Of a stretch of DNA of 64,000 nt, positions 4,291 to 22,811 are shown piece by piece. The translations under genes were made by a program, and so were the position numbers. This stretch comes from Rathayibacter sp. Leaf185. Its GTDB lineage: Bacteria > Actinomycetota > Actinomycetes > Actinomycetales > Microbacteriaceae. Each line of letters opens with the position of its first letter. Positions within the stretch are counted from its first letter, which is position 1. Location: assembly GCF_001423885.1 (NCBI RefSeq), contig NZ_LMPP01000001.1, positions 310,001 through 374,000 of the forward strand, written 5' to 3'. The notes under the pieces were generated by a model, which had not been told where the DNA came from, searched no databases, and saw nothing but the letters and a program-made list of their open reading frames with translations.

Positions 4291-4296
4291 GGGTGG

Positions 4297-6994: not shown

Positions 6995-7007
6995 CAGGCT
7001 GTCGGCC

Positions 7008-7748
7008 GTGCCTCCCTGGTCCCTCGCCCTGCTCAGCGGCGCCATCGGCGGCGCCACCCTCCTGGTCGGCGCCGCCCTCGCGTGGTTCGTCCGCGTGCCC
7101 CCGAAGCTCACCGCTGCGATCTCGGCGTTCGGCGCGGGAGTGCTGATCTCTGCGCTCGCCTACGAGCTCGTCGAGGAGGCGGCCGACGACGGCGGCCTGC
7201 TGCCCACCGTGCTCGGCACCCTCGTCGGCGCGCTCGTCTTCGTCGGAGCCGACGCCCTGCTCACCCGCGCAGGCGCCGGCAACCGCAAGAGCTCGAAGGG
7301 CACGGGCGGAGGCGGCGGCGCGGCGATCGCGGCCGGCGCGCTGATCGACGGGATCCCCGAGTCGATCGTGCTCGGCCTCTCGGTCGCGCAGGGCGGCGCC
7401 GGAGCAGCGATCAGCGTGCCGATCGTCGCCGCCGTCGCGATCTCGAACCTGCCCGAGGGCCTCTCCTCCACCGTCGGCATGAAGACCGACGGCCGGTCGG
7501 CCCGCTACGTCTTCACGGTCTGGGGAGGCATCGCGGGCCTGTCCGCGATCGCGGCGCTCGTCGGCTTCCTCGTCTTCGCGACGGCGCCGGGAGCGGTGGT
7601 CGCGTTCGTGACGACGGTCGCCGCCGGCGCGATCCTGGCGATGATCTCGAACACGATGATCCCGGAGGCGTTCGACCGCGACGACGTGCTCACCGGGCTG
7701 TACGCCGTGCTCGGGTTCGTCACCGCCTTCACGCTGCATTCGTTGTGA
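7008..7748 (+). CDS. ZIP-like metal transporter family membrane protein
   Basis: A 246-residue protein with about eight hydrophobic helices and a glycine-rich cytoplasmic loop (KSSKGTGGGGG, near residue 100) in place of the usual His-rich loop. The two ZIP signature helices are recognisable as DGIPESIVLG and ISNLPEGLSSTVG, but both canonical metal-binding histidines (H-N-x-P-E-G and H-E-x-P-E-G) are replaced, by Asp and Ser. ZIP proteins move divalent metals into the cytoplasm; with these changes the substrate is uncertain. The start is a GTG at 7008. It is followed directly by a terminator hairpin. Confidence 0.8.
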   Translation: MPPWSLALLSGAIGGATLLVGAALAWFVRVPPKLTAAISAFGAGVLISALAYELVEEAADDGGLLPTVLGTLVGALVFVGADALLTRAGAGNRKSSKGTGGGGGAAIAAGALIDGIPESIVLGLSVAQGGAGAAISVPIVAAVAISNLPEGLSSTVGMKTDGRSARYVFTVWGGIAGLSAIAALVGFLVFATAPGAVVAFVTTVAAGAILAMISNTMIPEAFDRDDVLTGLYAVLGFVTAFTLHSL

Positions 7749-7767
7749 ACGCCGCGCAGCGGCGTTC
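7747..7767. terminator. Terminator hairpin between convergent genes
   Basis: GAACGCCGC and GCGGCGTTC form a perfect 9-bp stem with a 3-nt loop, beginning inside the stop codon of the ZIP-like gene and lying before the convergent aminotransferase stop at 7805. It can act in both directions. Confidence 0.65.
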
Positions 7768-7804
7768 CGCAGTCGGCAGAGCCGAGGCCGCTTCCCGCAG
7801 AGCG

Positions 7805-9133: not shown

Positions 9134-9230
9134 GACCCCATCGTGCCGCTCCTCGTCGATGCTGTGGCTGCCGGATCCGTCTAGTGTGCAGCTCTACGAT
9201 GGACACACCGTCACGACTGGAGTGCTGCCC

Positions 9231-10742
9231 ATGCCCGCGACCGTCCGCGATCTGCTCGCCGAGCCGGCGTTCCGGCTCCGGATCCTCGCCGGCGTGCACG
9301 ACGAGGCCGCGCTCGACGCGCCGCTGGTCTGGGCTCACTCCTCCGACCTCGTCGACCCGACTCCGTGGCTCGAATCGGGGCAGCTGCTGCTGACCGACGG
9401 GGTGCACTTCACCGGCGACGATGCTGCCGAGTTCTCGGAGGCGTACGTCGCGCGCCTGCGCGGCCGCGGCATCCGTGCGCTCGGCTTCGCGACCGAGATC
9501 GTGCACGACCAGGTGCCGGCCCGCCTCGTCGCGGCCTGCGAACGGCAGGGGCTGCCCCTGCTCGAGGTGGCCGAGCGCACCCCCTTCATGGGCATCATCC
9601 GCTTCGTCGCCGACGTCATCTCGCGCGAGCAGCGCGAGCGGCTCGAGTGGTCGCTGGAGGCGCAGCGGCGCGTCGCCAGGGCGGCACTGCGCCCCGACGG
9701 GCTCGCCGCGATCCTCTCGGAGCTGGAGCGCCAGCTCGACTGCTGGGTCGCGCTCTACGACGCGGTCGGGCAGCGCGTGCACCTGCCGACGCGGCTCGAC
9801 GTCCCGGAGGCGGCCGAGGCCTCGGTCGCCGCGGCCGTGCGTCACGCGCTCTCCCGCGGCAGCCGGGCGGGCCTCCGCCTCGACGACGGCGGCGGGGTCA
9901 CCCTGCAGACCCTGGGGCAGCGCGACCATCTGCGCGGGGTGCTCGCGGTCGGCACCGGGACTCCGCTCGACCCGGCCGGCAACGATCTGGTCGCGAGCGT
10001 GATCGGGCTCGCGAGCATCGCCCTCGAGCAGCGCCGGGCGCTCGACACCTCGCGCCGGCAGCTGCGCTCGGGTCTGCTCGAGCTGCTCGCCGCGGGCGCG
10101 TTCGACGTCGCCGCCCGCACGGCGCGGCAGCTCTGGGGCACCCTGCCCGCCGAGCCAGTGCGGGTCAGCGTCCTGAGCGAGCCCGTCCGCGGTGACTCGC
10201 TGCTCGACGAGCTCGAGGTGTTCGCCGAGGAGAACGGCGCGCGCCTCTTCTTCGCCGAGCGCGACGACGCCCTCGTGGTCGTCACCGGCGCCGACGACCT
10301 CGACCTGATCGCGGGTGTGCTCGAGCGTCACGGCGCGACCGCCGGCGCCTCCGCCCCGATCGCCTGGGCCGAGCTCGATCGGGGTCTCGCGGAGGCGCGT
10401 CGCGCGGCCGAGCGCGCCACCCCCGACCGGCCGCTGCTGCGCTTCGAAGACGTGGCCGAGCAGGGCATGCTCGGCCTGCTCGCCGCGTCCGGAGCCGAGC
10501 CGCTCGCCCGGCGGATGCTCGAGCCGCTCCTGACCCGCGACGGCGCTCTCCTGCTCGAGTCGGCCCGCGTCTGGCTCCGCCGCAACGGCGCCTGGGACCC
10601 GGCCGCCCGCGAGCTCGGCGTGCACCGCCACACCCTCCGCAACCGCATCACCGCGGTGGAGCGGGCGCTCAGCATCGATCTCGACGATTTCGGCGCGCGC
10701 ACCGAGCTCTGGACCGCGATGGCCTTCCTCCCGGACCACTGA
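9231..10742 (+). CDS. PucR-family transcriptional regulator
   Basis: A 503-residue regulator with the three PucR parts: an N-terminal PucR_N domain (TVRDLLAEPAFRLRILAG, then LLLTDGVHFTG), a central GGDEF-like/GAF-like sensing region from about 150 to 410, and a C-terminal helix-turn-helix of the PucR type (ARVWLRRNGAWDPAARELGVHRHTLRNRI). PucR-type proteins activate catabolism of purines, GABA, beta-alanine or other amines. The ATG at 9231 has GGAG 8 bp upstream; the open frame extends much further but into the divergent aminotransferase gene. It probably activates that gene, and possibly mmsA on its other side. Confidence 0.9.
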   Translation: MPATVRDLLAEPAFRLRILAGVHDEAALDAPLVWAHSSDLVDPTPWLESGQLLLTDGVHFTGDDAAEFSEAYVARLRGRGIRALGFATEIVHDQVPARLVAACERQGLPLLEVAERTPFMGIIRFVADVISREQRERLEWSLEAQRRVARAALRPDGLAAILSELERQLDCWVALYDAVGQRVHLPTRLDVPEAAEASVAAAVRHALSRGSRAGLRLDDGGGVTLQTLGQRDHLRGVLAVGTGTPLDPAGNDLVASVIGLASIALEQRRALDTSRRQLRSGLLELLAAGAFDVAARTARQLWGTLPAEPVRVSVLSEPVRGDSLLDELEVFAEENGARLFFAERDDALVVVTGADDLDLIAGVLERHGATAGASAPIAWAELDRGLAEARRAAERATPDRPLLRFEDVAEQGMLGLLAASGAEPLARRMLEPLLTRDGALLLESARVWLRRNGAWDPAARELGVHRHTLRNRITAVERALSIDLDDFGARTELWTAMAFLPDH

Positions 10743-10778
10743 TCGATCAGCGCCTCTGCGCCCCGCCCCCGACGACGG

Positions 10779-10821
10779 TGGGTCTCGATACACCGCCCGC
10801 GGCGGCTACTCGACCAGCGGG
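10779..10821. repeat. Microbacteriaceae-type dispersed intergenic palindrome
   Basis: The block beginning GGGTCTCGATACACCGCC and ending GGCGGCTACTCGACCAGC resembles REP-like intergenic elements I recall from many Microbacteriaceae genomes. CCGCC and GGCGG pair around CGC as a short hairpin. It lies in the 250-bp gap between the convergent ends of the PucR gene and mmsA, which otherwise holds no gene I can see. Only one copy is in this window. Confidence 0.5.
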
Positions 10822-12010
10822 CAGGCGAGCAGGCCTCTCGGTCTGCCCGCCGGACGTCCTTCTCAGGGCCGAGCGCAACCGGCGATCCGCGTCCTAGCGG
10901 ATCGTCGTGCGCGGACGCGAGACGCTCTGCGGAACCCGGCCACCTCGCCGAGCCGACTGCGGCCGATCGACGAGCGCAGCGAGGAGAGAGGCCTAGGAGT
11001 TCTGCGGGAAGCCGAGGTTGATGCCGCCGTGGCTGGGGTCGAGCCATCGGGACGTGATGGCCTTCTGCTGGGTGAAGAAGCGCACGCCCTCGGCGCCGTG
11101 GGCTTTCGTGTCGCCGAACAGGGACGACTTCCAGCCGCCGAACGAGAACGTCGCGACCGGGACCGGGATGGGCACGTTGATGCCGATCATCCCGACCTCG
11201 ACCTCGTTCTGGAACCGGCGGGCCGCGCCTCCGTCGTTAGTGAAGATCGCCGTCCCGTTCCCGAACGCACCGTTGTTGATCAACGCCACGCCCTCCTCGT
11301 AGGACTGCACGCGCACGATCGAGAGCACCGGTCCGAAGATCTCCTCGGTGTACACCTTCGACGTGATCGGCACGTCATCGATGAGCGTCGGCCCCAGCCA
11401 GAACCCGTTCGGATCCCCGTCGACCTCGATCCCGCGACCATCGATGACGACCTTCGCTCCGTCCTCCTCCGCGATGGCGATGTACGACGCGACCTTGTCG
11501 CGGTGCACCTGCGTCACTAGCGGCCCCATGTCGCAGCCACGGCGTCCGTCGCCGATGCGCAGCTTCGAGGCGCGCTCCTGGATCTTCGTGATGAGCTCGT
11601 CCGCGACGGGCTCCACCGCGACGACCACCGAGATGGCCATGCACCGCTCCCCCGCCGAGCCGAAACCGGCGTTGATGGCGGAGTCCGCAACGAGGTCGAG
11701 ATCGGCGTCCGGCAGCACCAGCATGTGGTTCTTCGCACCACCCAGCGCCTGCACGCGCTTGCCGTGCTTCGTCCCCGTCTCGTACACGTACTGCGCGATG
11801 GGCGTCGACCCGACGAACGAGATCGACTTCACATCCGGGTGCTCGAGCAGCCCGTCGACCGCGACCTTGTCACCGTTCAGCACCGTGAAGACGCCGTCGG
11901 GCAGGCCCGCCTCCTTCCACAGGGCACCCAGCCAGATCGCGGCGGACGGATCCTTCTCGGACGGCTTCACCACCACGCTGTTGCCCGCCGCGATCGCGAT
12001 CGGGAAGAAC

Positions 12011-12306
12011 CACATCGGCACCATCGCCGGGAAATTGAACGGGCTGATGATCCCCACGACTCCCAGCGGCTGCTTGGTCGAGTACACGTCGACGCCGGTC
12101 GAGACCTGCTCGGAGTACTCGCCCTTCAAGTGGTGCGCCAGCCCGGGCACATCGGCACCATCGCCGGGAACACATCGGCACCATCGCCGGGAAATTGAAC
12201 GGGCTGATGATCCCCACGACTCCCAGCGGCTGCTTGGTCGAGTACACGTCGACGCCGGTCGAGACCTGCTCGGAGTACTCGCCCTTCAAGTGGTGCGCCA
12301 GCCCGG
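12011..12306. repeat. Local tandem duplication 1 within mmsA
   Basis: Positions 12011-12146 recur identically at 12171-12306 (136 bp, offset 160). Between them is one G and a 23-bp partial copy of the repeat's beginning (12148-12170). Confidence 0.95.
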
Positions 12307-12383
12307 TCGCGAACTCCACCACCTCCTGCCCTCGGGTGATCTCGCCCAGAGCGTCGGACACGACCTTGCCGTGCTCGGAGGTG

Positions 12384-12649
12384 ATGATCTCGGCCAGCTC
12401 CAGCTTCTTCGCCTCCAGCAGCTCCCGGAACCTGAACACGATCTGCTGACGCTTCGCCAGCGACGTGTCCCGCCACGCCGGGAACGCGGCCTTGCGAGCG
12501 TCGTCGCGCAGGGCTATGATCTCGGCCAGCTCCAGCTTATGATCTCGGCCAGCTCCAGCTTCTTCGCCTCCAGCAGCTCCCGGAACCTGAACACGATCTG
12601 CTGACGCTTCGCCAGCGACGTGTCCCGCCACGCCGGGAACGCGGCCTTG
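12384..12649. repeat. Local tandem duplication 2 within mmsA
   Basis: Positions 12384-12494 recur identically at 12539-12649 (111 bp, offset 155). Between them are 21 bp of unrelated sequence (12495-12515) and then a 23-bp partial copy of the repeat's beginning (12516-12538). The layout mirrors duplication 1, down to the 23-bp partial copy. Confidence 0.95.
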
Positions 12650-12847
12650 GCGGACGCGACGGCCGCATCGATCTCGGCCTGGTTCGCGAGCGCGACCTCC
12701 TTCGTCACGACGCCCAGCGCCGGGTCGTAGACCGGCGACGTCCGGCCCGACGACGACGCCGACAGCGCCCCATCGATCCAGTGGCCGACGACGGCGAGGC
12801 CGTCCGTGGACGGGGAGGTGCGGGGCTCGGCGATGCTCATGGGGTCG

Positions 12848-12853
12848 ACTGTA
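12848..12853 (-). promoter_or_regulatory. Possible -10 element for a leaderless mmsA transcript
   Basis: On the minus strand TACAGT (a TANNNT hexamer) ends 7 nt before the ATG at 12840, and no ribosome-binding sequence is present. That spacing is typical of leaderless actinobacterial transcripts. No convincing -35 was found. Confidence 0.35.
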
Positions 12854-12887
12854 AGCGGCCCACCTCCCCCGACACCCGCGGATTCGT

Positions 12888-13916
12888 CTAGCTCGAACCC
12901 TCCGGGCTGGACACATCCGGCTCGAAGCGGGCCAGCGCCGCCGTGATGTTGTCGTGTCCGCCGCGCTCGTTCGCCCAGGCGACCAGCGCCTCCGCCAGCG
13001 TCACCGGGTCGCTGCCGACCCGGGCGAGCGCGTCGTGCAGCACTCGCGCCAGATCGTCGGCGGGCGACGCGTAGTTCCACAGCCCGTCCGAGCACGCGAG
13101 CACCCAGCCCGGCTCGTCGAGCACGACGGAGGCGATGGTCGGCGACTCGTCGTGCGCATCGGCCCCCAGCCACTTGGTGATCGCGTGCGCATCGGGTGCC
13201 GACTCCGCCTGCTCGCGGCTCGTGCCCGAGGCGATCTGCTCCTGCGCCCACGAGTCGTCGACGGTCAGCTGGCGGGCCTCGCCCGCGTCGGGGATCCAGT
13301 AGCTGCGGCTGTCGCCCACATTGCCGGTGACCAGCAGGGCGCCGTCGAGGATCGCCGCGGTGAAGGTGCACGACGGCGGGTTCGCCCGCTTCTCGGGCAC
13401 TGCGGCGTCGATCGCTCCGGAGGCGCGCGCCACCGCCATCTGCAGCAGCGCGCCCCAGCGGTCGGCTCCGCGCGCCTCCTCGGCGACCTCGGCCTGCAGA
13501 GCGCTGAGGGCGGCACGGGCCGCCGCGAGGGAGGCGCGGTCGGAGTCGGGGGTCGACGAGACGCCGTCGCAGACCACCAGCAGGGCGGTACGCAGAGCGC
13601 CGTCGGTGGCCACCGCCCCGAGCGCCATCGCGTCTTCGTTCGCCGCGTGGCGGATGCCGCGGTCGCAGACGCCGCCGACCAGCGGGTGCGGCGCCTCGGA
13701 CCAGTGCTCGCGCTGGGTCGGCGCCCGCTGCCCGCACTGCTCGCAGTAGCCGTCGTCGGCCACCGCTCCCCCGCAGTACACGCACGGGGTGGGCTCGGCT
13801 GCCGACGGCTCGGCCGCCCGCACGATCAGCGTGCTGCCGCAGGCCTCGCAGAAGGCGTCCCCGGCGCTCACCGGCTCGCCGCAGACCGGGCAGGCGGTCG
13901 CGAGCTCGCCGCTCAC
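12888..13916 (-). CDS. PP2C-type Ser/Thr phosphatase with two N-terminal zinc ribbons
   Basis: A 342-residue protein. Residues 9-26 (CPVCG, CEACG) and about 45-62 (CVYCGG, DGYCEQCG) are two zinc ribbons. The rest is a PP2C phosphatase: DRGIRHAANEDA, VVCDGVSS, GNVGDSRSYW, ACSDGLWNY and GGHDNITAAL carry the metal-binding aspartates. No membrane segment is present, so it should act in the cytoplasm, removing phosphate from Ser/Thr. It is the last gene of the PknG operon; its start overlaps the kinase stop by 4 bases, making it the obvious antagonist of that kinase. Its DGYCxxCG ribbon resembles the ribbon at the kinase N-terminus. Confidence 0.92.
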   Translation of the reverse strand: MSGELATACPVCGEPVSAGDAFCEACGSTLIVRAAEPSAAEPTPCVYCGGAVADDGYCEQCGQRAPTQREHWSEAPHPLVGGVCDRGIRHAANEDAMALGAVATDGALRTALLVVCDGVSSTPDSDRASLAAARAALSALQAEVAEEARGADRWGALLQMAVARASGAIDAAVPEKRANPPSCTFTAAILDGALLVTGNVGDSRSYWIPDAGEARQLTVDDSWAQEQIASGTSREQAESAPDAHAITKWLGADAHDESPTIASVVLDEPGWVLACSDGLWNYASPADDLARVLHDALARVGSDPVTLAEALVAWANERGGHDNITAALARFEPDVSSPEGSS

Positions 13917-16231
13917 GTCAGGGTCCAGCGGCGGATGTCATTGGCGCGGTCGACGAGGCGCAGCCGCTCCTCCTTCTCGCGGGTCGCGCTCGCGAGCGCC
14001 CGGTACGACGCCTCGAGGCCGTCCCGGATCGCGGCCTCGTTGGCCTCGACTCCGCCCAGCATCGCGCCCTCGGCGGGCCCGTCGCGGCGGACGAGCTCGA
14101 GCGCCGACTCGAGCACGCCCGTCGTCAGCTCGAGGCGGGCGCGCTGGTCGATCGCGACGGAGTCGATGCTCGACAGGGCCGCCGAGAGCGACGGGAGCCC
14201 GCGCCCCGATCCCGCCAGCAGCTCCGCACGGCGGCGGCGGGCGTCGACGTAGGACGAGCGCGTGGGCGTGACGATGTCGAGGGCATCGAGCGCCCCGTCG
14301 AGGTCGGCGCGGTGCTGCCGCACGCGGGCGAGGCCGAAGGCGGCCGGCGCCGTGTAGTTCGCGTCCGCTCGGGCGCAGATCACGTAGAGCGACTCCGCCA
14401 CCTCGGGCTCGCCGCTCGACTCGCAGGCCGCGGCGAGCGCCAGCTTGGGCGCGAGCTCGCCGGGCACCTGGCCGTAGACGGTGTTGAACGAGGCGCGGGC
14501 GCCGACGGAGTCGCCCCGCGCCAGCTGCGCGAGCCCGCTCATCCAGACGGCCCGCCACTCCCACGGGTCCTCGGTGAGGATCTCGCCGGTCGCGCGGGAG
14601 ACCTCGTCCCAGCGCTCGGCCTCGATCGCCGCGCGGGCGCGCGACAGCCTCACCTCGACGGTCACCGTCGGCGCCAGCGCGAGGGCGCGGAGACGGACGA
14701 TCGGGTCGGCCACGTTGACGCCGGCCAGCCACGCCTTCGCCGCATCCGACTCGTCGATCTTCAGCAGCGGCAGCGCGTCCCACGGCAGCGGCCGGTCGAC
14801 GACGTCGGCCACGGGCGCCTCGAACAGCGCCGACTCGGTGGAGTGCAGTGCGGGATGACCCGGTCCGCGGTCGGTCGCGACGACCTCGCGCAGCACGCCG
14901 AGCAGCTGCCCGCGCATCTCGTCGACGGTGGCGAAGCGGTCCTGCGGATCGGGCGCGCAGGCCTTGGCGATCAGGCGGTAGAAGGAGTCGTATCGCTGGA
15001 ACAGCGGCGTCTCGGACACGGGCGGCAGCGAGGCCACGTAGGTGGTCTGGTTGCCGCGGAAGTCGAGCACGAGCGATGCGATGGTGCGCCCGATCGTGTA
15101 CACGTCCGAGGCGATGGACGGACCGACCTCGGGCACCTCCGGAGCCTGGTAGCCGACGGTGCCGTAGATGGCCGACTCGTCGTCGTCCATCCGGCGCACG
15201 CCACCGAGGTCGATCAGCTTCACCTGGTCGCCGACCTGGATCATGTTGTCGGGCTTGAAGTCGCAGTAGAGCATCCCGTGGTCGTGCAGGTACGCGAACG
15301 CGGGCATGACCTCGAGCACGAACGCCAGCGCCTGGTCGACGGGCAGCGGGTCGGCCGATCCCCCGTTGGCGTCGAGCCGCTCCTTCAGGATCTGCTTGAG
15401 GCTCGGGCCGCCGACGTACTCCATCACGATGTAGCCGGCGCCGTCGTGCATCACGAAGTTGTAGATCTCGACGATCAGCGGGTGCTCGACCTCGGCGAGG
15501 AACTGCCGCTCGGTGATCGCCGCGGCGTACGCGTCGGGGTCGCCGGAGTTGAGCAGGCCCTTGAGCACGACGAAGCGCCCCGAGACGTTCTGGTCGCGGG
15601 CGAGGTAGATCCAGCCGAGCCCGCCGTAGGCGAGGCAGCCCGCGACCTCGTACTGGCCGCCGACGACGTCGCCCTGCTTCAGCTGCGGGGTGAACGAGAA
15701 CGGCGTGCGGCAGTTGGGGCAGAAGCCCTCGGTGCGGCCGGCCTTGCCGTCGCGGCCACGGCCGACCGCGGTGCCGCAGTTCGAGCAGAAGCGCTTGCGC
15801 TCGGGGAGCACCGCCTCCGTCATCAGCGCGGCCATCGGGTCGGCGGCGGGGCGCGAGGGCACGGTCGTGAGTCCGGCGCCCAGGCGCGGTCCGCGGAGGC
15901 GGGTCGACGTCGTGCCGACCCGTCGCGTCACCTTCGAGCCGGTCTGCGCGGTGCGCGCCGAGCCGAGCGCGGCGGTCGCGAGGCGGGCCGAGGAGGTGCG
16001 TCCGCTCCGCGCGGTCGCCGCCTCCTCGGCATCCGGGGCGGCGGAGGCGTCGGGCGTGCCCTCGACGAAGCCGGTGCCGAACGCGGCCGACGCGGTCGCG
16101 GGGGCGGCTCCCCGCGCGGTGGGCGCCGATACCGCAGCCGCCGTCTCGGGCGGCAGCCCGCAGACGTTGCAGTAGCCGTCCTCGATGACTCCGGTGCAGC
16201 CCGGGGTCGAGGTGCAGGGTGAGCCGTTCAT
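13913..16231 (-). CDS. pknG: PknG-type serine/threonine protein kinase
   Basis: A 772-residue cytoplasmic kinase with the PknG domain order. An extra zinc ribbon (C6, C12, C21, C24) and a disordered linker come first, then a rubredoxin-like domain (C149, C152, C171, C174), a kinase domain from about 194 to 450, and a TPR-like helical C-terminus. Catalytic residues are present: Lys224 in VVLK, Asp324 in YCDFKPDN, DLG 341-343 and GTVGYQAPE. In mycobacteria and corynebacteria PknG phosphorylates the FHA protein GarA/OdhI to control 2-oxoglutarate metabolism, in response to GlnH and GlnX. Both partners are encoded just upstream here. No GarA gene is in the window. Confidence 0.94.
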   Translation of the reverse strand: MNGSPCTSTPGCTGVIEDGYCNVCGLPPETAAAVSAPTARGAAPATASAAFGTGFVEGTPDASAAPDAEEAATARSGRTSSARLATAALGSARTAQTGSKVTRRVGTTSTRLRGPRLGAGLTTVPSRPAADPMAALMTEAVLPERKRFCSNCGTAVGRGRDGKAGRTEGFCPNCRTPFSFTPQLKQGDVVGGQYEVAGCLAYGGLGWIYLARDQNVSGRFVVLKGLLNSGDPDAYAAAITERQFLAEVEHPLIVEIYNFVMHDGAGYIVMEYVGGPSLKQILKERLDANGGSADPLPVDQALAFVLEVMPAFAYLHDHGMLYCDFKPDNMIQVGDQVKLIDLGGVRRMDDDESAIYGTVGYQAPEVPEVGPSIASDVYTIGRTIASLVLDFRGNQTTYVASLPPVSETPLFQRYDSFYRLIAKACAPDPQDRFATVDEMRGQLLGVLREVVATDRGPGHPALHSTESALFEAPVADVVDRPLPWDALPLLKIDESDAAKAWLAGVNVADPIVRLRALALAPTVTVEVRLSRARAAIEAERWDEVSRATGEILTEDPWEWRAVWMSGLAQLARGDSVGARASFNTVYGQVPGELAPKLALAAACESSGEPEVAESLYVICARADANYTAPAAFGLARVRQHRADLDGALDALDIVTPTRSSYVDARRRRAELLAGSGRGLPSLSAALSSIDSVAIDQRARLELTTGVLESALELVRRDGPAEGAMLGGVEANEAAIRDGLEASYRALASATREKEERLRLVDRANDIRRWTLT

Positions 16232-17373
16232 GGGGTGGCCTTCCGGTGGGGGGTGCTCGGCAGATCGCGGGTGACGACGTCGTACTGCTCGACGAGGTGG
16301 CGGGCGAGCGGCACCGGGCAGGGCACGGCGTCGAGGGCGGCGCGCACCTCCTCCTCGGCGGCGATCCCGACCGCGGAGACGGCGCGGCCGTTCGCGACGG
16401 CCCGCTCGCGAAGAGCGCGGAGGCGGAACCCGAGGGCGGCCCGCTCTCGCAGCGGCGAGGTGTACGCGGCCTCGACCGCGTCGAAGGCGCGGCTCACCGC
16501 GGTGAGGCGGGCGAGGTGCGCGTCGAGCGCCTGCCGGTTCGACGGCGGATCGCCGAGCCGCGAGACGTCGGGCACCGCGAGCCGGGGCGGGTCGGCGATC
16601 TCGCGGCGGCAGCGGGCCACGAGTTCGCGCAACGGCGCCTCGCGACGCTCCGCCGCCTCCGCCAGCTCGACGGCCCGGCGACGGTCGCGGTCGAGACCAC
16701 GGCGCTCGGAGGCGGCGATGATCAGGTCGCGCTCGAGACGGGCGGAGTCGCTCTCGAGCTGCCCGAGCGGGCCCGACACGTCGGCTCCCCGGCCCGCCTT
16801 CTCGGCCAGCGCGTCGAGGCGCGAGCGCAGCACGGCGACACGCTGCGCGGCGTCCTGGTCGACGGTTCCGCGGTTGTCGCGGGTGAGGTCGCGGCAGCGC
16901 TCGATCTCGGCGCGCACGCCGACGATCCGCCCCGCGACATCGGTGCCGCTGGGGTCGAGCTCGAGCCGCGACTTCAGCTGCCCGACGACCGCGTCGCAGA
17001 GCCGCACGGCCTCGACGAGCGAGACCGCGGCACTGGCGCCCGAGCCGGTGGAGTCGAGCCGCCCCCAGATCAGCTGCGACATCCGCTCGCGGGCGACGAC
17101 GTCGACCCGCCCCGAGTCCCAGACCAGCTCGAGCTCGGCGAGGCGGCGGGTGACCGACTCGCGCAGCGACTGCGCGAGCACCACGTCGGAGGTGTAGCTG
17201 TCGGCCTGAGGCGAGGCGAGAGCGGCCGCGTCCAGGCGCGAGAGCTCGCGGGTGGTGCGCTCGAGCCAGCGCCCGAGAGCGGCGAGGTACTCGAACAGCT
17301 CGCGCTGCGGCACGGCCTCGCCGAGGCGCCCCGGAGCGACCGGGCTCCCCTCCGCGGTTCCCGTGATGCTCAT
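16228..17373 (-). CDS. Helical/coiled-coil protein of the PknG operon, function unknown
   Basis: A 381-residue Arg/Glu/Ala-rich protein with no signal peptide or membrane helix. Long charged helical stretches dominate (LFEYLAALGRWLERTTREL, VRAEIERCRDLTRDNRG, and about 200-260). I do not recognise a family. It is locked between the binding-lipoprotein gene and pknG by 4-base overlaps at both ends, so it should be made in step with them. A scaffold or adaptor linking the membrane sensor to the kinase is a reasonable guess from position only. Confidence 0.8.
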   Translation of the reverse strand: MSITGTAEGSPVAPGRLGEAVPQRELFEYLAALGRWLERTTRELSRLDAAALASPQADSYTSDVVLAQSLRESVTRRLAELELVWDSGRVDVVARERMSQLIWGRLDSTGSGASAAVSLVEAVRLCDAVVGQLKSRLELDPSGTDVAGRIVGVRAEIERCRDLTRDNRGTVDQDAAQRVAVLRSRLDALAEKAGRGADVSGPLGQLESDSARLERDLIIAASERRGLDRDRRRAVELAEAAERREAPLRELVARCRREIADPPRLAVPDVSRLGDPPSNRQALDAHLARLTAVSRAFDAVEAAYTSPLRERAALGFRLRALRERAVANGRAVSAVGIAAEEEVRAALDAVPCPVPLARHLVEQYDVVTRDLPSTPHRKATP

Positions 17374-18332
17374 CGCCCGTAGGTCGCCGCGGGAGGCGAT
17401 GCCGCCCCGAGCTCGCCGAGCCAGCGGTCGTAGATGCTCTGCCAGCGGCCGTCGGTGCGGAGGCTCTCGAGTGCGGCGTTCACGAAGCGCACGTAGTCGG
17501 GGTCGCCGGCGGGCATGCCCAGCCCGTACGGCTCGGAGCTCAGCTGACCGCCGATCACCTTCGCGTACGGGTCCTGCGCGACGAAGCCGGCGAGGATCGT
17601 GTCGTCGCCCGCGATCGCGTCGACGGTCCCCTCCTGGAACTGCGCGAGGCACTGGGTGTGGGTGTCGGCGGCGACCGCCTCGACATCGGGGTAGTCGCTC
17701 TCGAGCCGGCTGAGCGTGGTGGTGCTGCGCGGGGCGCAGACCTTCTGATCGGCCAGACCGTCGATGCTCGTCGCTGCGTTGTCCTCGGACACCAGGACCT
17801 TCAGCCCCGCGTCGTAGTACTCGGACGAGAACGCGATGCTGCTCCAGCGGTCGCAGGTCATCGTGAGCGTGCGGGCGACCATGTCGACCTGCGGCGCCCC
17901 GTCTCCGCCGGTCAGGGCAGGCAGGCGCTGAGCGGAGGTGATCACGACGAAGGTGATCGCGTCGGGGTTCCCGAGGATCGCGCGGGCCATCTCGCGGGCG
18001 ATGTCGATGTCGAAGCCCTCGATCGCGCCGGTGAGCGGGTTGCGCGAGCTCATCAGCAGCGTGTCGGCCGAGACGCCGACTTTGAGGGTGCCGTTGGTGC
18101 GGATCTCGGCGAGCCGCGCGCTGTCGGTCACTCCGGTGGGGGCGTAGGAGGTGACAGCCGACGGCGAGCACTCGGTCGCCGCGGGCGCGGCGCTCGCAGT
18201 GGCCGTGGGTGCCGCGGTCGGAGTCGCGGTCCCGACGACCGTGCCGAGGTCGTCGGCACCTGTCGTGCAGCCGGAGACGGCGAGGGTGGCGGCCAGCACC
18301 AGGGCGGCGGCGGCGGTGCGCAGACGGTTCAT
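17370..18332 (-). CDS. glnH: GlnH-like amino-acid-binding lipoprotein (SBP_bac_3)
   Basis: A 320-residue lipoprotein. Residues 1-22 are a signal with lipobox VSGC (Cys22). The mature domain is a family 3 amino-acid-binding fold: SARLAEIRTNGTLKVGVSADTLLM, NPLTGAIEGFDIDIAREMARAI, and a C-terminal PYGLGMPAGDPDYVRFVNAALES. No ABC permease or ATPase is nearby. As in the mycobacterial glnX-glnH-pknG locus, it more likely acts as an extracellular sensor of Asp, Glu or Gln than as a transporter subunit. Its start overlaps the GlnX-like gene by 4 bases. The exact ligand is not readable from the sequence. Confidence 0.88.
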   Translation of the reverse strand: MNRLRTAAAALVLAATLAVSGCTTGADDLGTVVGTATPTAAPTATASAAPAATECSPSAVTSYAPTGVTDSARLAEIRTNGTLKVGVSADTLLMSSRNPLTGAIEGFDIDIAREMARAILGNPDAITFVVITSAQRLPALTGGDGAPQVDMVARTLTMTCDRWSSIAFSSEYYDAGLKVLVSEDNAATSIDGLADQKVCAPRSTTTLSRLESDYPDVEAVAADTHTQCLAQFQEGTVDAIAGDDTILAGFVAQDPYAKVIGGQLSSEPYGLGMPAGDPDYVRFVNAALESLRTDGRWQSIYDRWLGELGAASPPAATYGR

Positions 18333-19624
18333 CGGTACTCCTCCAGTCGCTGCGAGACCCCGCGCCAGGCGAGACCGGCCCCCACGAGGCCGGCGGCCAG
18401 CAGGATCCACGAGGCGATCGACGAGATCGCGCCCCAGGTGCCGAGAGTGGCGCGGGTGATCGCGGCGTCGTCCTCCACGGCGTCCCCGGCATCCGTCGAG
18501 AAGGCCGAGAACGCGGCGTTCGCTGAGCCGGGCTCGGTGGCCACGGCCAGCTCGACAGCGTCGTCCCACAGCCCGCCGTCATCGGCCGCGCGGATGCCGT
18601 CGTGCAGCGCGAGCCACGCATCCAGCTCGCTCACGAGCGAGCCGTCCACGATCCCCGCGTCCACCCCGTCCTGCAGCTTCTCCCGCGCCTCCCCGGCCGC
18701 CTCCTGGAACTGCGCCTCGAGCGCCGCCCCCGAGCCGCGCTTGATCAGGGTGAAGCTCTCGAGCGACTTCGCGTCCGTGGCCGCGGTGAGGGCCTGCGAG
18801 ACGGCGAGCGTCGCGCGGTAGGAGTCGCTGCGCACCGAGGCGGCGTTCGAGGCGGTCGTGCCGAACACGACTCCGCCGGCGATGCCGAGCACGAGCAGCA
18901 GCACGGTGGCCGTCGCGAGCGAGCGGTTGAGGTAGCGGTGCGTGCGGCGGGCGAGCCAGATCTGCGCGCCGACCATCAGCAGCAGCATCGCGAGCGAGCC
19001 GACGAGCAGCAGCGTGCTCCAGCGCACGGTGTCGTAGGCGCTCGCGACGCGGTCGGCACCGGTGGCGACGAGATCGTTCAGGTCGTCGAGCACGCCGTCC
19101 TCGGCGGTGAGCACGGTGGACGCCTGATCGAGGTACGCCGAGCCGACCGGGAAGCCCTGCCGGTTGTTCGCTCGGGCCTGCTCGATCAGGCCGCTGTAGG
19201 TCGTCAGGTCGCGCGCGACGGCGGCGAGGGCTTCGGCGTCGCGGGGCTCGGCGGCCGCGAGCGTCGACAGCTGCGAGGCCGCGACCTGGAGGTCGCCGGT
19301 GAACTCGGCGCGCTGATCGGCCGGCTCGAGGCCGCCGACGAGGAACGTGTTGGCCGCGATCGCGTTCGCGCCGACCAGGGTGTTGCGCACGTTCTGCACG
19401 CCGACGATCTGCGTCGACTGCTCTCGGGCCTCGGCTGCGGCGCGCGCCTGCAGCGCCCCCGCCTGCTGGGCGAAGACCCCGAACAGCACCGCCGCGACGG
19501 CGGTCAGCACGAGCAGGAGGCGGAGGGTGCGCGGAGTGGTCGAGGTCGCCCGGGCGAGCAGGGTCGGCTTCGCGGGGGGTGCGGGCGCCGGCGCGGGTGC
19601 CGGCGGCGCGGTGGCGATGCTCAT
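18329..19624 (-). CDS. glnX: GlnX-like membrane signalling protein
   Basis: A 431-residue protein with a Pro/Ala-rich cytoplasmic N-terminus and four transmembrane helices (about 34-52, 202-225, 236-256 and 399-418). They enclose two large helical extracytoplasmic loops of about 150 and 140 residues, like paired four-helix-bundle sensor domains. This is the layout of GlnX, which passes the GlnH signal to PknG across the membrane. The ATG at 19624 overlaps the AAA ATPase stop by 4 bases. Assignment rests on topology plus the neighbouring glnH and pknG genes; sequence identity to known GlnX was not tested. Confidence 0.8.
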   Translation of the reverse strand: MSIATAPPAPAPAPAPPAKPTLLARATSTTPRTLRLLLVLTAVAAVLFGVFAQQAGALQARAAAEAREQSTQIVGVQNVRNTLVGANAIAANTFLVGGLEPADQRAEFTGDLQVAASQLSTLAAAEPRDAEALAAVARDLTTYSGLIEQARANNRQGFPVGSAYLDQASTVLTAEDGVLDDLNDLVATGADRVASAYDTVRWSTLLLVGSLAMLLLMVGAQIWLARRTHRYLNRSLATATVLLLVLGIAGGVVFGTTASNAASVRSDSYRATLAVSQALTAATDAKSLESFTLIKRGSGAALEAQFQEAAGEAREKLQDGVDAGIVDGSLVSELDAWLALHDGIRAADDGGLWDDAVELAVATEPGSANAAFSAFSTDAGDAVEDDAAITRATLGTWGAISSIASWILLAAGLVGAGLAWRGVSQRLEEYR

Positions 19625-21033
19625 CTGTTCTCCTCCATGGGTGCAGCCTCTGCTTCCACGACGTCCTCCGGCACGAGGATCCGCAGCTCGTCGAGCGTCG
19701 GCTCCTCGGTGTCGCGCAGCCGCCAGGCGTGCCGGGCGATGGAGGCGTCGAGCACGTTGCGCACCCAGCGCCCGTTGCCGAACGCCTCCGTGCGCTGCTG
19801 GGCCGCGGCGAGCTCGGCGAACGCGGCGAGCGCCTCCTCGGTCGGCTCGAAATCGGCCGAGGAGGCGAGGCGCGCGAAGATCGCCGACAGCTCGTCGTCG
19901 GAGTAGTCGGCGAAGTCGATCGTGGTCGAGAAGCGGCTCGCGAGACCCGGGTTCGTGTCGAGGAAGCCCTGCATGGGTCCGGAGTAGCCGGCCACGATCA
20001 CGACCAGGTCGCCGCGGTGGTCCTCCATGTCCTTGACCAGCGTGGTGATCGCCTCCGCGCCGTACTGGTCGAGCGCGAGGGCGTAGGCCTCGTCGATGAA
20101 GAGGACGCCGCCGCGGGCCTTCGCGATGACCTCGGCGGTCTTCATCGAGGTCTGGCCGAGGTAGCCGGCGACGAGCTCGGAGCGGTCGACCTCGACGAGC
20201 ACGCCCTTCGAGAGGATGCCGAGCGAGCGGTAGATCCGCGAGACGAGCCGGGCGACGGTCGTCTTGCCGGTGCCGGGGTTGCCGGTGAAGACCAGGTGGC
20301 GGGTGAGCGTCGGCGTGGTGAGTCCGGCGGCCTGGCGGAGCGTGTCGATGCGGAGCAGCTGCGTCTGCCGCTTGATCTCGCTCTTGACCCTGTCGAGCCC
20401 GATCAGCGCGTCGAGCTCGGCGAGGAGGTCCTCGATCTTCTCGGGTGGGGGCAGCGGCTCGGGCTCCTCCTCCGCGGCCGGGGCGGCAGGAGGCGCGGCA
20501 GCGGTCGGCGGGGTGACCTCGTCCTGCGGCCCCTCGTGCTCGGTGCGGCGCAGGCGCGCGAGGATCTCGTCGACTCCGGGCACTCCCGTGGGCAGATCGG
20601 TCGGGAGCGGGGAGGGCGGCATCGGAGCACCGCGAGAACCCTGCACCGGCAGCGCCGCGAGCTGGGCGGCGGCGGCCGCGGAGGCGGAGGCGATGCCTCC
20701 GATGCCCGGATCGCCCAGTGCGCTCGCGGCCGAGACGACCTCGGTGAGCGCCCGGGCGTAGGCGCTCGCGTGCTCGGACCCGGCCGCGACCAGCGACGCG
20801 AGCAGGTCGGTCGGCGAGCTGCGCCAGCGCCGCCCGCGGGACGCCGCCGTGAAGAAGGCCTCGAGGCCGCCCGGAGTCCCGGTCTGCGCGAGCCAGTCCT
20901 GGCCCGCTCCCGTGATCGACTCGGCGACGGCGGCGGAGAGCCGACCGCCCTCCTCGCGCACGACGGCGGCGTCGAGCCCCGCCTCGGATCCGGTGAGCAC
21001 GAGCGCGTCGAGCGCGGCGGTGAGCGCGGTCAC
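19621..21033 (-). CDS. CbxX/EccA-type AAA+ ATPase
   Basis: A 470-residue protein in two parts. Residues 1-140 are Ala-rich helices; after a Pro/Glu-rich linker a CbxX-family AAA+ module starts near 205 (ELDALIGLDRVKSEIKRQ). Walker A is GNPGTGKT at 251-258 and Walker B is GVLFIDEA at 309-316. Later come the GYSGPMQGFLDTNPGLASRF block and the sensor-2 segment FGNGRWVRNVL. Relatives remodel protein complexes (CbbX on Rubisco, EccA in type VII secretion). Its start overlaps the upstream small gene by 4 bases. Within this operon it would be the energy-driven remodeller; the client is unknown. Confidence 0.9.
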   Translation of the reverse strand: MTALTAALDALVLTGSEAGLDAAVVREEGGRLSAAVAESITGAGQDWLAQTGTPGGLEAFFTAASRGRRWRSSPTDLLASLVAAGSEHASAYARALTEVVSAASALGDPGIGGIASASAAAAAQLAALPVQGSRGAPMPPSPLPTDLPTGVPGVDEILARLRRTEHEGPQDEVTPPTAAAPPAAPAAEEEPEPLPPPEKIEDLLAELDALIGLDRVKSEIKRQTQLLRIDTLRQAAGLTTPTLTRHLVFTGNPGTGKTTVARLVSRIYRSLGILSKGVLVEVDRSELVAGYLGQTSMKTAEVIAKARGGVLFIDEAYALALDQYGAEAITTLVKDMEDHRGDLVVIVAGYSGPMQGFLDTNPGLASRFSTTIDFADYSDDELSAIFARLASSADFEPTEEALAAFAELAAAQQRTEAFGNGRWVRNVLDASIARHAWRLRDTEEPTLDELRILVPEDVVEAEAAPMEENR

Positions 21034-21605
21034 GACGCCCTCGGCGGCTGGAGGGAACCGGGTGCGCTCGGGGGCTGGAGCGTGTCAGGCGCGGGCGTCG
21101 CATCGAGCCCGCTCGGCGACAGCGACGACTCCGTGAACTTCTCGGCGAGGAACTGCCCGTGGGCGATCAGCGCGGAGGCATCCTGGCGCGAGACGGCGTC
21201 GGAGATGCGGTCGAGCGTCGCCCCGAGGAGGTCGAGCTGGTCGCAGAGGATCATCAGCGAGGTCTTCCCCTTGTGGACGGCGCGGCGGTCGGCGAAGTCG
21301 CGCGGCAGGCGGAGGTAGCCCTCGACCGCCTCCGGCAGATAGCTGGTCGCGGAGGCCACCACCGTGTGCCCCTGCTGGCTCATCCCCCCGAGGCGGTCGA
21401 GCCGGGGCACCATCTCGCGCACGGTCTCATCGACGCGCCGGATGCGGGCGGCGACGATCGGCGGCACACGATCCTTCGTCTCGGCCGCGACCCGGTCGAG
21501 CGCCGCGAGGATGTCGTCGCTCGACGGCACGCGCGGGAGGGCGGGCGCGGTCTCCGCCGGGGCGGCGGGCTCATCGCCGCCGAACAGTCGGGAGAGCCAG
21601 CCCAT
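21030..21605 (-). CDS. Small helical protein coupled to telA, function unknown
   Basis: A 191-residue soluble protein beginning MGWLSRLFGGDE, whose amphipathic start may touch the membrane. The core (about 30-150) is helical and charged (VAAETKDRVPPIVAARIRR, ATLDRISDAVSRQDASAL), and the tail is Pro/Ser-rich. It starts 3 bp after the telA stop and overlaps the AAA gene by 4 bases. In other bacteria telA-type genes are often paired with a small helical xpaC-type gene; this could be a distant equivalent, but I see no decisive motif. Confidence 0.8.
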   Translation of the reverse strand: MGWLSRLFGGDEPAAPAETAPALPRVPSSDDILAALDRVAAETKDRVPPIVAARIRRVDETVREMVPRLDRLGGMSQQGHTVVASATSYLPEAVEGYLRLPRDFADRRAVHKGKTSLMILCDQLDLLGATLDRISDAVSRQDASALIAHGQFLAEKFTESSLSPSGLDATPAPDTLQPPSAPGSLQPPRAS

Positions 21606-21608
21606 CGG

Positions 21609-22811
21609 CTATCGACCGAGATCGAGCGAGGAGGCCGCGTCGATGTCGGAGTTGCTGCGGCGCGCGCGCTCGACGTAGTCGCCCGCCTTCGCGGTCTCGA
21701 CCTGCAGTACGCCGACCGTCTGGGCCATGCTGTCGAGCGCCTTGATCTTGAAGTCCGAGATCGAGTCCATCGTCTGGTAGATGTTCGCGAACGCCGCCTG
21801 CAGCTGCGGCAGGCCGACCGTGGCCGACGCCGCCTGCGACTGGATGCTCGCGGACTGCTCGGCGAGCATCCGCGAGGTGGCCTCGATCATGTTCGAGGTC
21901 GTCGTGTTGAGCGCCGTGATCTGGTCGAGCACCAGGCGCTGGTTGGCGAGCGCCTGCGCGACGATGACGGCGGTGCGCAGGGCCGAGACCGTGGTCGTGG
22001 TGGCGCGGTCGACCCCCTTGATGAGCTCGACGTTGTTCTTGATGACGACGTCGATCGCGAGGTAGCCCTGGATCGAGACGGCCAGCTGGGTCAGCAGGTC
22101 CTGGTGCTTCTGACGGGCGTAGAAGAGGACGTCCTCGCGGAGCGCCCGGGCGCGATCGGGGTCGGTCGCGTCGAGCTCGGCGATCTTCGCCGAGAGCTTC
22201 ACGTCGAGCCGCTCGGCGACGTAGATGTACTCGTTGAGACGCGTCATCGTGTCCCACAGGTTCTGCTTCTCGAGGTTGAGCGCCGCGTTGTCCTTGCGCA
22301 GCTCGTCCTGCCCGTCGTACAGCGCCTGGATGATCGCGTTGAGGTGCGACTGCGCGCTCTCGTAGCGGCGGAAGTAGTCGGTGATCTTGTTGCCGAAGGG
22401 GATGAAGCCGAGGATCTTCTTCTGGATGTTGTCCTCGGACGGGTCGAGATCCTCGACCGTGCGGCGCAGCTCGAGCAGCGTCCTGCCGATGTTCGAGCCC
22501 TCGCTCAGGCCGCCCTCCTGCAGGGCGCGCACCGGAGTCTTGAGCAGCCGGTTGGAGGAGTCGGCGGCCGAGCGGATGTCGGCGTCGCCCATCGTGCGGA
22601 TGTCGTTGGCCTTCGCCGCGAACTCGGGGCTGCGCGCCTCCGTCTGCAGCAGCGAGTTCAGGTAGCCGTCGACCTTGGCCTCGAGGCCGGGCAGCGCCTG
22701 CTCGGGCACCTTCGGCGCGATCGACGGCGCCGATGTCGTCGACACGGCCGACACGGGTGCCGGCGGCGTGAGAGAAAGGGCGTTTTGCGGCGGCTGCAGA
22801 GCCTCGGTCAT
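21609..22811 (-). CDS. TelA-family (toxic anion resistance) protein
   Basis: A 400-residue cytoplasmic, almost wholly helical protein of the TelA family. Recognisable parts are ILGFIPFGNKITDYFRRYESAQSHLNAIIQALYDGQDELRKDN, the block around LREDVLFYARQKHQDLLTQLAVSIQGYLAIDVVI, and RTAVIVAQALANQRLVLDQI (each longer than one motif, so only key words are given here). TelA relatives are linked to tellurite and envelope stress, but their chemistry is unknown. The ATG at 22811 has GAGGA about 6 bp upstream, while the open frame continues about 40 codons further without support. It is the first gene of the eight-gene PknG operon. Confidence 0.9.
   Translation of the reverse strand: MTEALQPPQNALSLTPPAPVSAVSTTSAPSIAPKVPEQALPGLEAKVDGYLNSLLQTEARSPEFAAKANDIRTMGDADIRSAADSSNRLLKTPVRALQEGGLSEGSNIGRTLLELRRTVEDLDPSEDNIQKKILGFIPFGNKITDYFRRYESAQSHLNAIIQALYDGQDELRKDNAALNLEKQNLWDTMTRLNEYIYVAERLDVKLSAKIAELDATDPDRARALREDVLFYARQKHQDLLTQLAVSIQGYLAIDVVIKNNVELIKGVDRATTTTVSALRTAVIVAQALANQRLVLDQITALNTTTSNMIEATSRMLAEQSASIQSQAASATVGLPQLQAAFANIYQTMDSISDFKIKALDSMAQTVGVLQVETAKAGDYVERARRSNSDIDAASSLDLGR

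What the first reader, a model, noticed from the sequence alone, without database searches (positions are those of the whole stretch)
12888..22811. Eight-gene PknG-GlnHX operon that also encodes TelA, a CbxX AAA ATPase, a coiled-coil protein and a PP2C phosphatase
All eight genes run on one strand with 4-base overlaps at six junctions and a 3-bp gap at the other. The sensing core (GlnX, GlnH, PknG) matches the mycobacterial and corynebacterial nutrient-sensing kinase system. Here it is translationally coupled to a phosphatase, a remodelling ATPase, a TelA protein and two proteins of unknown family. This looks like a self-contained extracellular amino-acid or stress signal pathway in which TelA and the AAA ATPase could be effectors or targets of PknG. 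I know the PknG-GlnH-GlnX link from the literature; I do not know of the eight-part version being studied as one system.
Basis: partly seen in the sequence, partly recalled or inferred. Interest (0 to 1): 0.82.

Follow-up and report, generated by a model that had tools for sequence, protein, structure and literature searches.

The report
Amino-acid-sensing kinase operon, usually ten genes
A bacterial operon joins a known amino-acid-sensing kinase to a phosphatase, a stress-resistance protein, an ATP-driven remodelling enzyme and several partners; the same gene order recurs in many soil bacteria, usually with two further genes that look like the on/off switch of this pathway.

Summary
In detail: eight genes, one strand, six 4-base overlaps, one 3-base gap. 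All ten stand in this order in 87 of 116 loci, 74 of 100 without near-copies; most exceptions are contig ends. In this genome (near Rathayibacter) the last two lie just outside the window, 14.4 kb beyond PP2C, with other genes between. So the unit is ten genes, split here. The FHA protein's best solved relatives are archaeal ArnA; the vWA protein's is 4FX5, a reported structural match of the ArnB paralog. Best mechanism, inferred: GlnH/GlnX set PknG activity; PknG and PP2C write and erase phosphothreonine on a conserved vWA tail; the FHA protein reads it; TelA-P191 and the AAA ATPase are the output. Ligand, substrate and output are untested. The three-gene mycobacterial form looks like a reduced version. 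New variant of a known kind.

The parts
21609..22811 (-). telA (400 aa), TelA family PF05816; first gene of the operon
   Evidence: 305.8 bits, E 4.5e-91; the one TelA match in the genome
21030..21605 (-). P191 (191 aa): TelA-partner family, all-helical; no Pfam or NCBIfam match
   Evidence: profile match to a family found beside TelA in other actinobacteria, probability 99.6%, E 1.5e-24; model pLDDT 84, no PDB match at E<=0.001
19621..21033 (-). CbxX/SpoVK/EccA-like AAA+ ATPase (470 aa)
   Evidence: best PDB CbbX 3zuh E 2.4e-55, then EccA1; below the equivalog cut-offs of SpoVK, EccA and CbbX
18329..19624 (-). glnX (431 aa): four hydrophobic segments, GlnX family
   Evidence: (NF058618 256.7 bits, cut-off 250)
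17370..18332 (-). glnH (320 aa): predicted lipoprotein, solute-binding protein family 3
   Evidence: lipobox; best PDB GlnH 6h2t E 3.1e-59; pocket residues
16228..17373 (-). CC (381 aa): helical family between glnH and pknG; no Pfam match over cut-off, no NCBIfam match
   Evidence: model pLDDT 91, all-helical, no PDB match at E<=0.001
13913..16231 (-). pknG (772 aa): N-terminal Cys4 ribbon, rubredoxin-like domain, kinase, TPR
   Evidence: PknG 2pzi E 3.8e-138; catalytic motifs present
12888..13916 (-). PP2C phosphatase (342 aa) with N-terminal double zinc ribbon
   Evidence: PP2C motifs present
1..12887 (.). in-window part of the 14.4-kb stretch (C1:308442-322887) between PP2C and the outlying vWA and FHA genes: ABC transporter, regulators, aminotransferase, aldehyde dehydrogenase (named by eye from translations, no family search). 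Not part of the system; vWA and FHA lie beyond window position 1
   Evidence: gap 0.2-14.6 kb in 10 relatives where it could be measured

Best explanation
This is a ten-gene amino-acid-sensing phosphorylation system, split in this genome by 14.4 kb of other genes after the eighth gene. SHOWN by sequence: composition, conserved order, key motifs in kinase, phosphatase and AAA ATPase, and the two outlying genes. INFERRED: the lipoprotein GlnH binds an amino acid outside the cell; the membrane protein GlnX passes this to the TPR domain of PknG, with CC as a helical scaffold. PknG phosphorylates the conserved Thr-rich C-terminal tail of the vWA protein (STKT(T/S/V)R), PP2C removes the phosphate, and the zinc-ribbon/FHA protein binds the phosphorylated tail, an ArnA/ArnB-like loose-to-tight switch. 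The switch controls a membrane-side machine of TelA, its partner P191 and the CbxX-like AAA ATPase, tuning envelope or stress tolerance to amino-acid supply. The zinc ribbons on PknG, PP2C and FHA may help them assemble. A branch to GarA may coexist.
For: Order: all ten genes in one order in 26/31, 5/5 and 56/80 loci; the genes present keep the order in 116/116, which is weak for loci cut to a few genes. Without near-copies 74 of 100; with room on the contig, vWA and FHA follow PP2C in 84 of 86 distinct loci, and TelA and P191 precede AAA in 80 of 80. Co-occurrence in 297 genomes of the order: CC with PknG 32/32, p 7e-40; CC with TelA 31/32, p 2e-16 (related genomes make p optimistic). Loss: four PknG loci (L067, L069, L070, L071) nest inside the ten-gene clade (SH-aLRT 100; 100/100) and show no TelA, P191, AAA, CC or vWA nearby but keep GlnX, GlnH and PknG; GlnH and PknG are then -106 to 116 bases apart, no room for CC. 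Motifs: vWA tail 104 of 108, MIDAS 100 of 108; FHA SRRH 81 of 104, NGT 94 of 104; two C..CG ribbons 101 of 104 (near-copies included). FHA best PDB hits: chain C of 8s05 (E 3e-8), the entry of the ArnAB complex, and ArnA 5a8i (9e-8). vWA best hit 4fx5, E 1e-115, described as a structural match of the ArnB paralog (PMC6509490, passage). ArnA binds the phosphorylated C-terminal domain of ArnB in a nutrient-dependent way (PMC6509490, PMC12852372: abstracts and passages). GlnX-GlnH-PknG link: PMC6069109, PMC9769921 (passages).
Against: No experiment. The FHA match to ArnA is modest (E about 1e-7 to 1e-8) and rests mostly on the FHA fold; a plant FHA protein, GarA, TB39.8 and OdhI follow more weakly. 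The tail motif could be conserved for another reason. In Sulfolobus itself, mutation of single ArnB phosphosites did not affect motility, and no ArnB peptide with falling phosphorylation was found on starvation (PMC6509490); PMC12852372 says ArnB-like architectures are mostly not in multi-phosphorylation processes. In this genus the vWA-FHA pair is often several kb away, so tight linkage is not essential, and in L205 no vWA was seen within 15 kb of PP2C. L154 and L178 lack vWA and FHA although there is room. Seven of 80 named loci, and L025, lack a detectable GlnH between GlnX and CC. TelA occurs in 64 of 265 CC-negative genomes, so it has other roles. No link from the switch to TelA or AAA is shown.
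Confidence: 0.45

Rival explanations
1. Canonical metabolic switch only: GlnH-GlnX-PknG phosphorylates the stand-alone GarA/OdhI homologue and so controls the 2-oxoglutarate node; the other genes are carried along for expression or act elsewhere.
For: PknG, GlnX and GlnH match the studied system; the genome has an FHA protein that by eye is GarA-like, with an N-terminal TDTTLTF stretch (L063; no GarA-specific model was run); reduced loci keep glnX, glnH and pknG; the function is established in Corynebacterium and mycobacteria (PMC6069109, PMC9769921, passages).
Against: Passenger genes would hardly keep one order with tight junctions over so many families nor be missing together in the reduced loci; the operon carries its own FHA protein and phosphatase.
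Confidence: 0.25
2. Ter-like stress or conflict system: TelA, vWA and AAA form a sub-membrane structure against xenobiotics, envelope damage or phage, and the kinase cascade senses that threat rather than nutrients.
For: TelA and a vWA protein (TerF) are named as sub-membrane parts of Ter systems (PMC7824862, passage); a Listeria telA mutant is 4-fold more sensitive to nisin and 2-fold to tellurite, and telA sits beside an XpaC-like gene (PMC12791056, PMC11765107, passages); a TelA-partner gene is conserved; PknG's kinase domain matches the defence kinase family PD-T4-6 (E 1.5e-36), as kinase domains may.
Against: No TerD in the genome, and no Ter family other than TelA among the Pfam hits of the eight genes or of this genome's FHA and vWA genes; other PADLOC hits are weak ATPase and solute-binding matches; CC has no match in 50,697 phage records; the input is a solute-binding protein that keeps amino-acid backbone residues.
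Confidence: 0.2
3. One reading: PknG phosphorylates TelA, the AAA ATPase or CC directly, and PP2C reverses it; vWA and FHA are accessory.
For: Tight junctions of these genes with pknG and joint absence from the reduced loci.
Against: Phospho-motifs in TelA, AAA and CC were not sought; an FHA protein with a conserved Thr-rich partner tail is present and better placed. Phosphorylation of TelA or AAA cannot be excluded by sequence.
Confidence: 0.1

Closest known systems
GlnX-GlnH-PknG operon of mycobacteria and Corynebacterium (PMC6069109, PMC9769921, PMC8546545; passages read)
   Same: Same three families in the same order; TPR domain, and the rubredoxin domain that Corynebacterium lacks; membrane transducer; lipoprotein sensor.
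   Different: Seven further genes, including its own phosphatase, FHA and vWA proteins; GlnH Trp232 replaced by His in 79 of 99 loci; GlnX below the equivalog cut-off (81 against 780 bits).
ArnA-ArnB phospho-switch of Sulfolobus (PMC6509490, PMC12852372; abstracts and passages read)
   Same: Zinc-finger + FHA protein paired with a vWA protein, with a kinase and a phosphatase, in nutrient signalling; FHA best solved relatives are ArnA; vWA homologue 4FX5 is a structural match of the ArnB paralog.
   Different: Archaeal, controls the archaellum; phosphatase is PP2A-like; no GlnH/GlnX, TelA or AAA described there; the phospho-region is a helical bundle in ArnB, here a short C-terminal tail is proposed.
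TelA-XpaC pair of Firmicutes (Listeria lmo1967-lmo1966; PMC12791056, passage read)
   Same: TelA encoded next to a partner gene.
   Different: P191 gives no detectable match to XpaC; here the pair is followed by AAA and the kinase genes.
CbbX, EccA and SpoVK AAA+ ATPases
   Same: Same AAA core; best PDB matches CbbX and EccA1.
   Different: Below each family's cut-off: SpoVK 257 of 423, EccA 234 of 467, CbbX 229 of 459 bits.

Membership tests
GlnX-GlnH-PknG sensing system | PknG with kinase, rubredoxin and PknG_TPR domains | tested here: met
   all three over cut-off; motifs
GlnX-GlnH-PknG sensing system | GlnX family membrane protein | tested here: met
   NF058618 256.7 bits, cut-off 250; four hydrophobic segments
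GlnX-GlnH-PknG sensing system | GlnX equivalog of the PknG-activating protein (NF041460) | tested here: not met
   81 bits, cut-off 780
GlnX-GlnH-PknG sensing system | Asp/Glu-specific GlnH pocket | tested here: inconclusive
   window keeps Arg147, Thr162, Arg169, Asp250; Ser164 is Thr, Trp232 is His, Lys161 is Arg; Thr162 kept in 26 of 99 ten-gene loci (residue list from PMC6069109, placed by alignment)
GlnX-GlnH-PknG sensing system | GarA/OdhI FHA substrate in the genome | tested here: inconclusive
   FHA protein present, GarA-like by eye; phosphorylation by PknG not testable
GlnX-GlnH-PknG sensing system | amino-acid-dependent PknG activity | not testable with these tools
   needs an experiment
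ArnA-ArnB phospho-switch | zinc-ribbon + FHA protein related to ArnA | tested here: met
   8s05 chain C E 2.9e-8 and 5a8i E 9.1e-8, best two of 15 hits (8S05 is the ArnAB entry); zinc ribbon and FHA over cut-off
ArnA-ArnB phospho-switch | vWA protein with ArnB-like three-domain architecture | tested here: inconclusive
   by homology to 4fx5 (E 1e-115); own structure not modelled
ArnA-ArnB phospho-switch | phosphorylation-dependent FHA binding of the vWA C-terminus | not testable with these tools
   conserved Thr-rich tail only
ArnA-ArnB phospho-switch | PP2A-type phosphatase partner | tested here: not met
   the linked phosphatase is PP2C
Ter stress system | TelA | tested here: met
Ter stress system | TerD protein | tested here: not met
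   no PF02342 in the genome
TelA-XpaC pair | partner matches PF10112 | tested here: not met
   no PF10112 among 19 P191 members at E<=10
CbbX / EccA / SpoVK | score over the equivalog cut-off | tested here: not met

The most novel reading that the evidence does not exclude
The mycobacterial GlnX-GlnH-PknG trio is a stripped form of an older actinobacterial signalling machine whose direct output is an ArnA/ArnB-like FHA-vWA phospho-switch that drives a TelA-P191 plus CbxX-like AAA membrane-remodelling complex. If so, one nutrient-responsive zinc-FHA / vWA / kinase / phosphatase module is shared by Bacteria and Archaea, and PknG has a second, non-metabolic arm in many Actinobacteria.
Probability: 0.3. 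Interest if true: 0.82.

Novelty: new variant of a known kind. Interest (0 to 1): 0.62.

Why it matters
PknG is studied as a three-gene nutrient sensor acting on GarA/OdhI. A ten-gene operon in many soil actinobacteria supplies candidate missing parts: a dedicated phosphatase, an FHA reader, a vWA substrate, a scaffold and an effector side (TelA, AAA). It makes the question of what else PknG does directly testable, offers a setting for TelA, and gives a bacterial system for testing ArnA/ArnB-like switches. The two ArnA-ArnB papers I consulted do not contain the word PknG (PMC6509490; PMC12852372).

Tried and rejected
XpaC as the identity of P191: unproven; 19 members give no PF10112 match and hhalign against one XpaC-like TelA neighbour (L075, PF10112 29.4 bits, cut-off 29.8) is negative, though that was one sequence only. 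S. coelicolor SCO4775-4779 as the known counterpart: rejected, it is five separately transcribed kinase genes (passages). Fold searches of P191 and CC: no PDB match at E<=0.001. Anti-phage system: see the second rival. Promoter/terminator scan: uninformative (one promoter-like site on the other strand, no terminator). Script faults: searches stopped with errors (58 redone as 60, 74 as 75; 40 printed most of what was wanted). My pattern for the PknG N-terminal Cys4 ribbon was badly made (1 of 116), while alignment A1 shows those cysteines invariant in 16 of 16 rows. The stored table behind keeps only the first matched stretch of each ORF, so lost 31 of 77 tree rows; one search repeats the tree with all 77 (quick method, SH-aLRT only; three long branches are flagged as unsure). 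The search for duplicate loci was faulty and was redone. PMC4104200 (Ter systems, 2012) is not held, so an earlier mention of this neighbourhood there cannot be excluded.
Full report
WHAT IS THERE. The window holds eight minus-strand genes at 12888-22811 exactly as described: TelA, a 191-aa protein (P191), a CbxX-like AAA ATPase, GlnX, GlnH, a coiled-coil protein (CC), PknG and a PP2C phosphatase with zinc ribbons. Six junctions overlap by four bases and one has a 3-base gap. Pfam and NCBIfam confirm the named families; P191 has no match and CC none over a cut-off. PknG keeps its kinase motifs, rubredoxin domain and TPR domain, and its best solved relative is PknG 2pzi. The organism is near Rathayibacter: the closest named PknG is 93% identical in its best segment, from Rathayibacter sp. 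VKM Ac-2630 (records of the window's own or a very near genome may be left out there).

THE OPERON IS USUALLY TEN GENES. I fetched neighbourhoods of up to 20 kb. Calling genes around PP2C showed two further families next to it: one with a von Willebrand A domain and VWA_3_C, and one with an FHA domain, in two of the three members scanned with zinc ribbons as well. With ten profiles, all ten genes stand in one order in 26 of 31 loci from the CC-positive genomes of the order, 5 of 5 loci from other orders (found through PknG_TPR and picked from longer hit lists), and 56 of 80 named loci. In 116 of 116 the genes that are present keep that order, a weak statement for contigs cut to a few genes. 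Sixteen of the 116 are near-copies of another (several are the same genome under a name and a handle); without them it is 74 of 100. Where the contig leaves room, vWA and FHA follow PP2C in 84 of 86 distinct loci (exceptions L178, and L151 whose contig ends after vWA), and TelA and P191 precede AAA in 80 of 80. Of the five misses among the 31, four are cut by contig ends and L025 lacks GlnH. Real departures among the 80 are GlnH missing between GlnX and CC (L154, L177, L179, L182, L183, L184, L186) and vWA and FHA missing despite room (L154 with 2.7 kb, L178).

THE TWO MISSING GENES ARE JUST OUTSIDE THE WINDOW. In the window's own genome the vWA gene lies at C1:307167-308441 and the FHA gene at C1:306289-307170, same strand, while the window begins at C1:310001. 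Between PP2C and vWA lie 14.4 kb of other genes, by eye an amidase, an oligopeptide-type ABC transporter, two regulators, an aminotransferase, an aldehyde dehydrogenase and others, with similar G+C (0.717 against 0.736 for vWA-FHA). All 15 genomes examined in the genus have CC. I fetched 13 of the 14 others; the gap could be measured in 10: 178 and 909 bases, and 6.4, 6.8, 7.2, 8.1, 9.4, 11.4, 11.8 and 14.6 kb. In two the contig ended, and in one (L205) no vWA was seen in the 15 kb after PP2C. One insertion that changed later and several insertions were not told apart. In those ten the pair stays on the same strand.

DISTRIBUTION AND HISTORY. In 297 genomes of the order, PknG_TPR is over cut-off in 35, CC matches in 32 and TelA in 95. 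CC and PknG occur together in 32 of 32; CC and TelA in 31 of 32, the exception being an incomplete assembly with the locus cut. In those samples no other genome of the window's family matched CC or TelA, and one matched PknG_TPR only below cut-off; Agreia, of the same family, has the operon (L108). CC-like genes at weak but significant scores (28-48 bits) also occur in a seven-gene type (glnX, glnH, CC, pknG, PP2C, vWA, FHA): complete in that order in L044, L046, L048, L054, L057, L091, L102 and L104, and with glnX-glnH moved to the end in L050, L099, L100 and L101; other loci lack one or more parts. Of 11 loci of family f6 (L088-L098, taken to be mycolic-acid bacteria), 10 show none of the seven extra families (three show PknG alone); L091, one of four PknG copies in its genome, is of the seven-gene type. 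A PknG tree of 77 rows (midpoint root, SH-aLRT) puts all 33 ten-gene rows and four reduced loci (L067, L069, L070, L071) in one group (100), with 46 of the 77 rows, gave 100/100. The reduced loci keep GlnX, GlnH and PknG; no TelA, P191, AAA, CC or vWA was seen next to them; FHA remains in two and PP2C in two; GlnH and PknG are -106 to 116 bases apart, so CC is truly gone. G841 has an unlinked TelA, and L071 is a second copy in a genome with a complete operon. L091 is sister to the ten f6 three-gene rows (99), which favours reduction of a larger operon there; two other three-gene rows (L059, L060) branch elsewhere. The window groups with VKM Ac-2855 and Agreia and next with Oerskovia of another family (96-100), which fits horizontal gain or wide loss in Microbacteriaceae; I did not separate these.

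PARTS OF UNKNOWN FAMILY. P191 is related to a family found next to TelA in 10 of 15 fetched TelA loci without PknG (one of the ten picked by eye; hhalign probability 99.6%, E 1.5e-24), so it is a TelA partner; a link to XpaC was not shown. Its model is a helical bundle (pLDDT 84) without a PDB match at E<=0.001. CC is predicted all-helical (pLDDT 91), also without a match.

MECHANISM. Sensor lipoprotein, membrane protein, kinase, phosphatase, FHA protein and vWA protein carry their key motifs. The vWA protein ends in a conserved tail with STKT(T/S/V)R in 104 of 108 (tails listed). Its best solved relative is 4fx5 (E 1e-115), which Hoffmann et al. describe as a structural match of the ArnB paralog (PMC6509490). 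The FHA protein's best solved relatives are chain C of 8s05, the ArnAB complex, and ArnA 5a8i. In Sulfolobus, ArnA binds the phosphorylated C-terminal domain of ArnB; the complex is tight in rich medium and lost on starvation (PMC6509490, PMC12852372; abstracts and passages), although single-site mutants kept function and no ArnB peptide with falling phosphorylation was found. I therefore propose that PknG writes and PP2C erases phosphothreonine on the vWA tail, that the FHA protein reads it, and that this pair sets the activity of TelA-P191 and the AAA ATPase. The step from the switch to TelA and AAA is inference from linkage. TelA is tied to envelope stress in Listeria (passages in PMC12791056 and PMC11765107).

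WHAT GLNH SENSES. In the ten-gene type Arg169 and Asp250, which hold the amino-acid backbone, and Arg147, which contacts the ligand side chain, are kept in 98 of 99, but Trp232 is His in 79 of 99 and Thr162 varies (positions from PMC6069109, placed by alignment to an f6 locus). An amino acid is likely; Asp/Glu specificity is open.

KNOWN OR NEW. The sensing core is known. Searches for PknG with TelA and tellurite (0 papers), TelA with CbxX, PP2C and TerD (0 with three of the four), PknG with von Willebrand and Streptomyces (one paper, PMC1262709, where PknG occurs only in a reference), PknG/FHA/von Willebrand/Actinobacteria/operon (19 listed, of which I read parts of four, those on the PknG trio and ArnA-ArnB, besides PMC1262709) and TelA/FHA/AAA (one listing, by its title a type VII secretion paper, not opened) found no description of this operon in the held library. 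PMC6069109 says the PknG operon is conserved in the Actinomycetales, citing STRING, so others may have seen extra genes; a 2012 paper on Ter systems could not be read.

Noticed in passing
window 1-12887 and C1:308442-309999 (left of the window): Variable stretch inside the operon: the PP2C-vWA gap is 178 bases to 14.6 kb in 10 other genomes of the genus where it could be measured, and 14.4 kb here, filled with catabolic and transport genes (named by eye).
   Followed up: partly
window 12011-12649: Two direct repeats (136 bases at 100%, 116 bases at 98%, spacing 160 and 155) inside the aldehyde dehydrogenase gene, whose reading frame is in pieces there. Real duplication or assembly artefact not told apart.
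   Followed up: partly
L179, L182, L183, L184, L186, L177, L025, L154: Ten-gene-type operons without detectable GlnH, most with a weak GlnX, as if the sensor part had been lost or swapped; several are Propionibacteriaceae by record title.
   Followed up: partly
L050, L061, L099-L101, L106: Loci with rearranged order: kinase part first (CC before pknG in five of the six) and glnX-glnH at the end.
   Followed up: no
C1:304879-305931 (left of the window): A second Ser/Thr kinase gene on the opposite strand next to the FHA gene; a kinase match at a similar place also appears in L107, L153 and several genus loci.
   Followed up: no
L068, L073, L076-L080, L084-L086: TelA without PknG is followed by one to three P191-like genes in 10 of 15 fetched loci; seven of these proteins were scanned and none reaches a Pfam cut-off.
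   Followed up: partly
L074: TelA directly followed by the AAA gene, without P191 or a kinase gene of the system in the 20 kb: a possible two-gene remnant or precursor.
   Followed up: no
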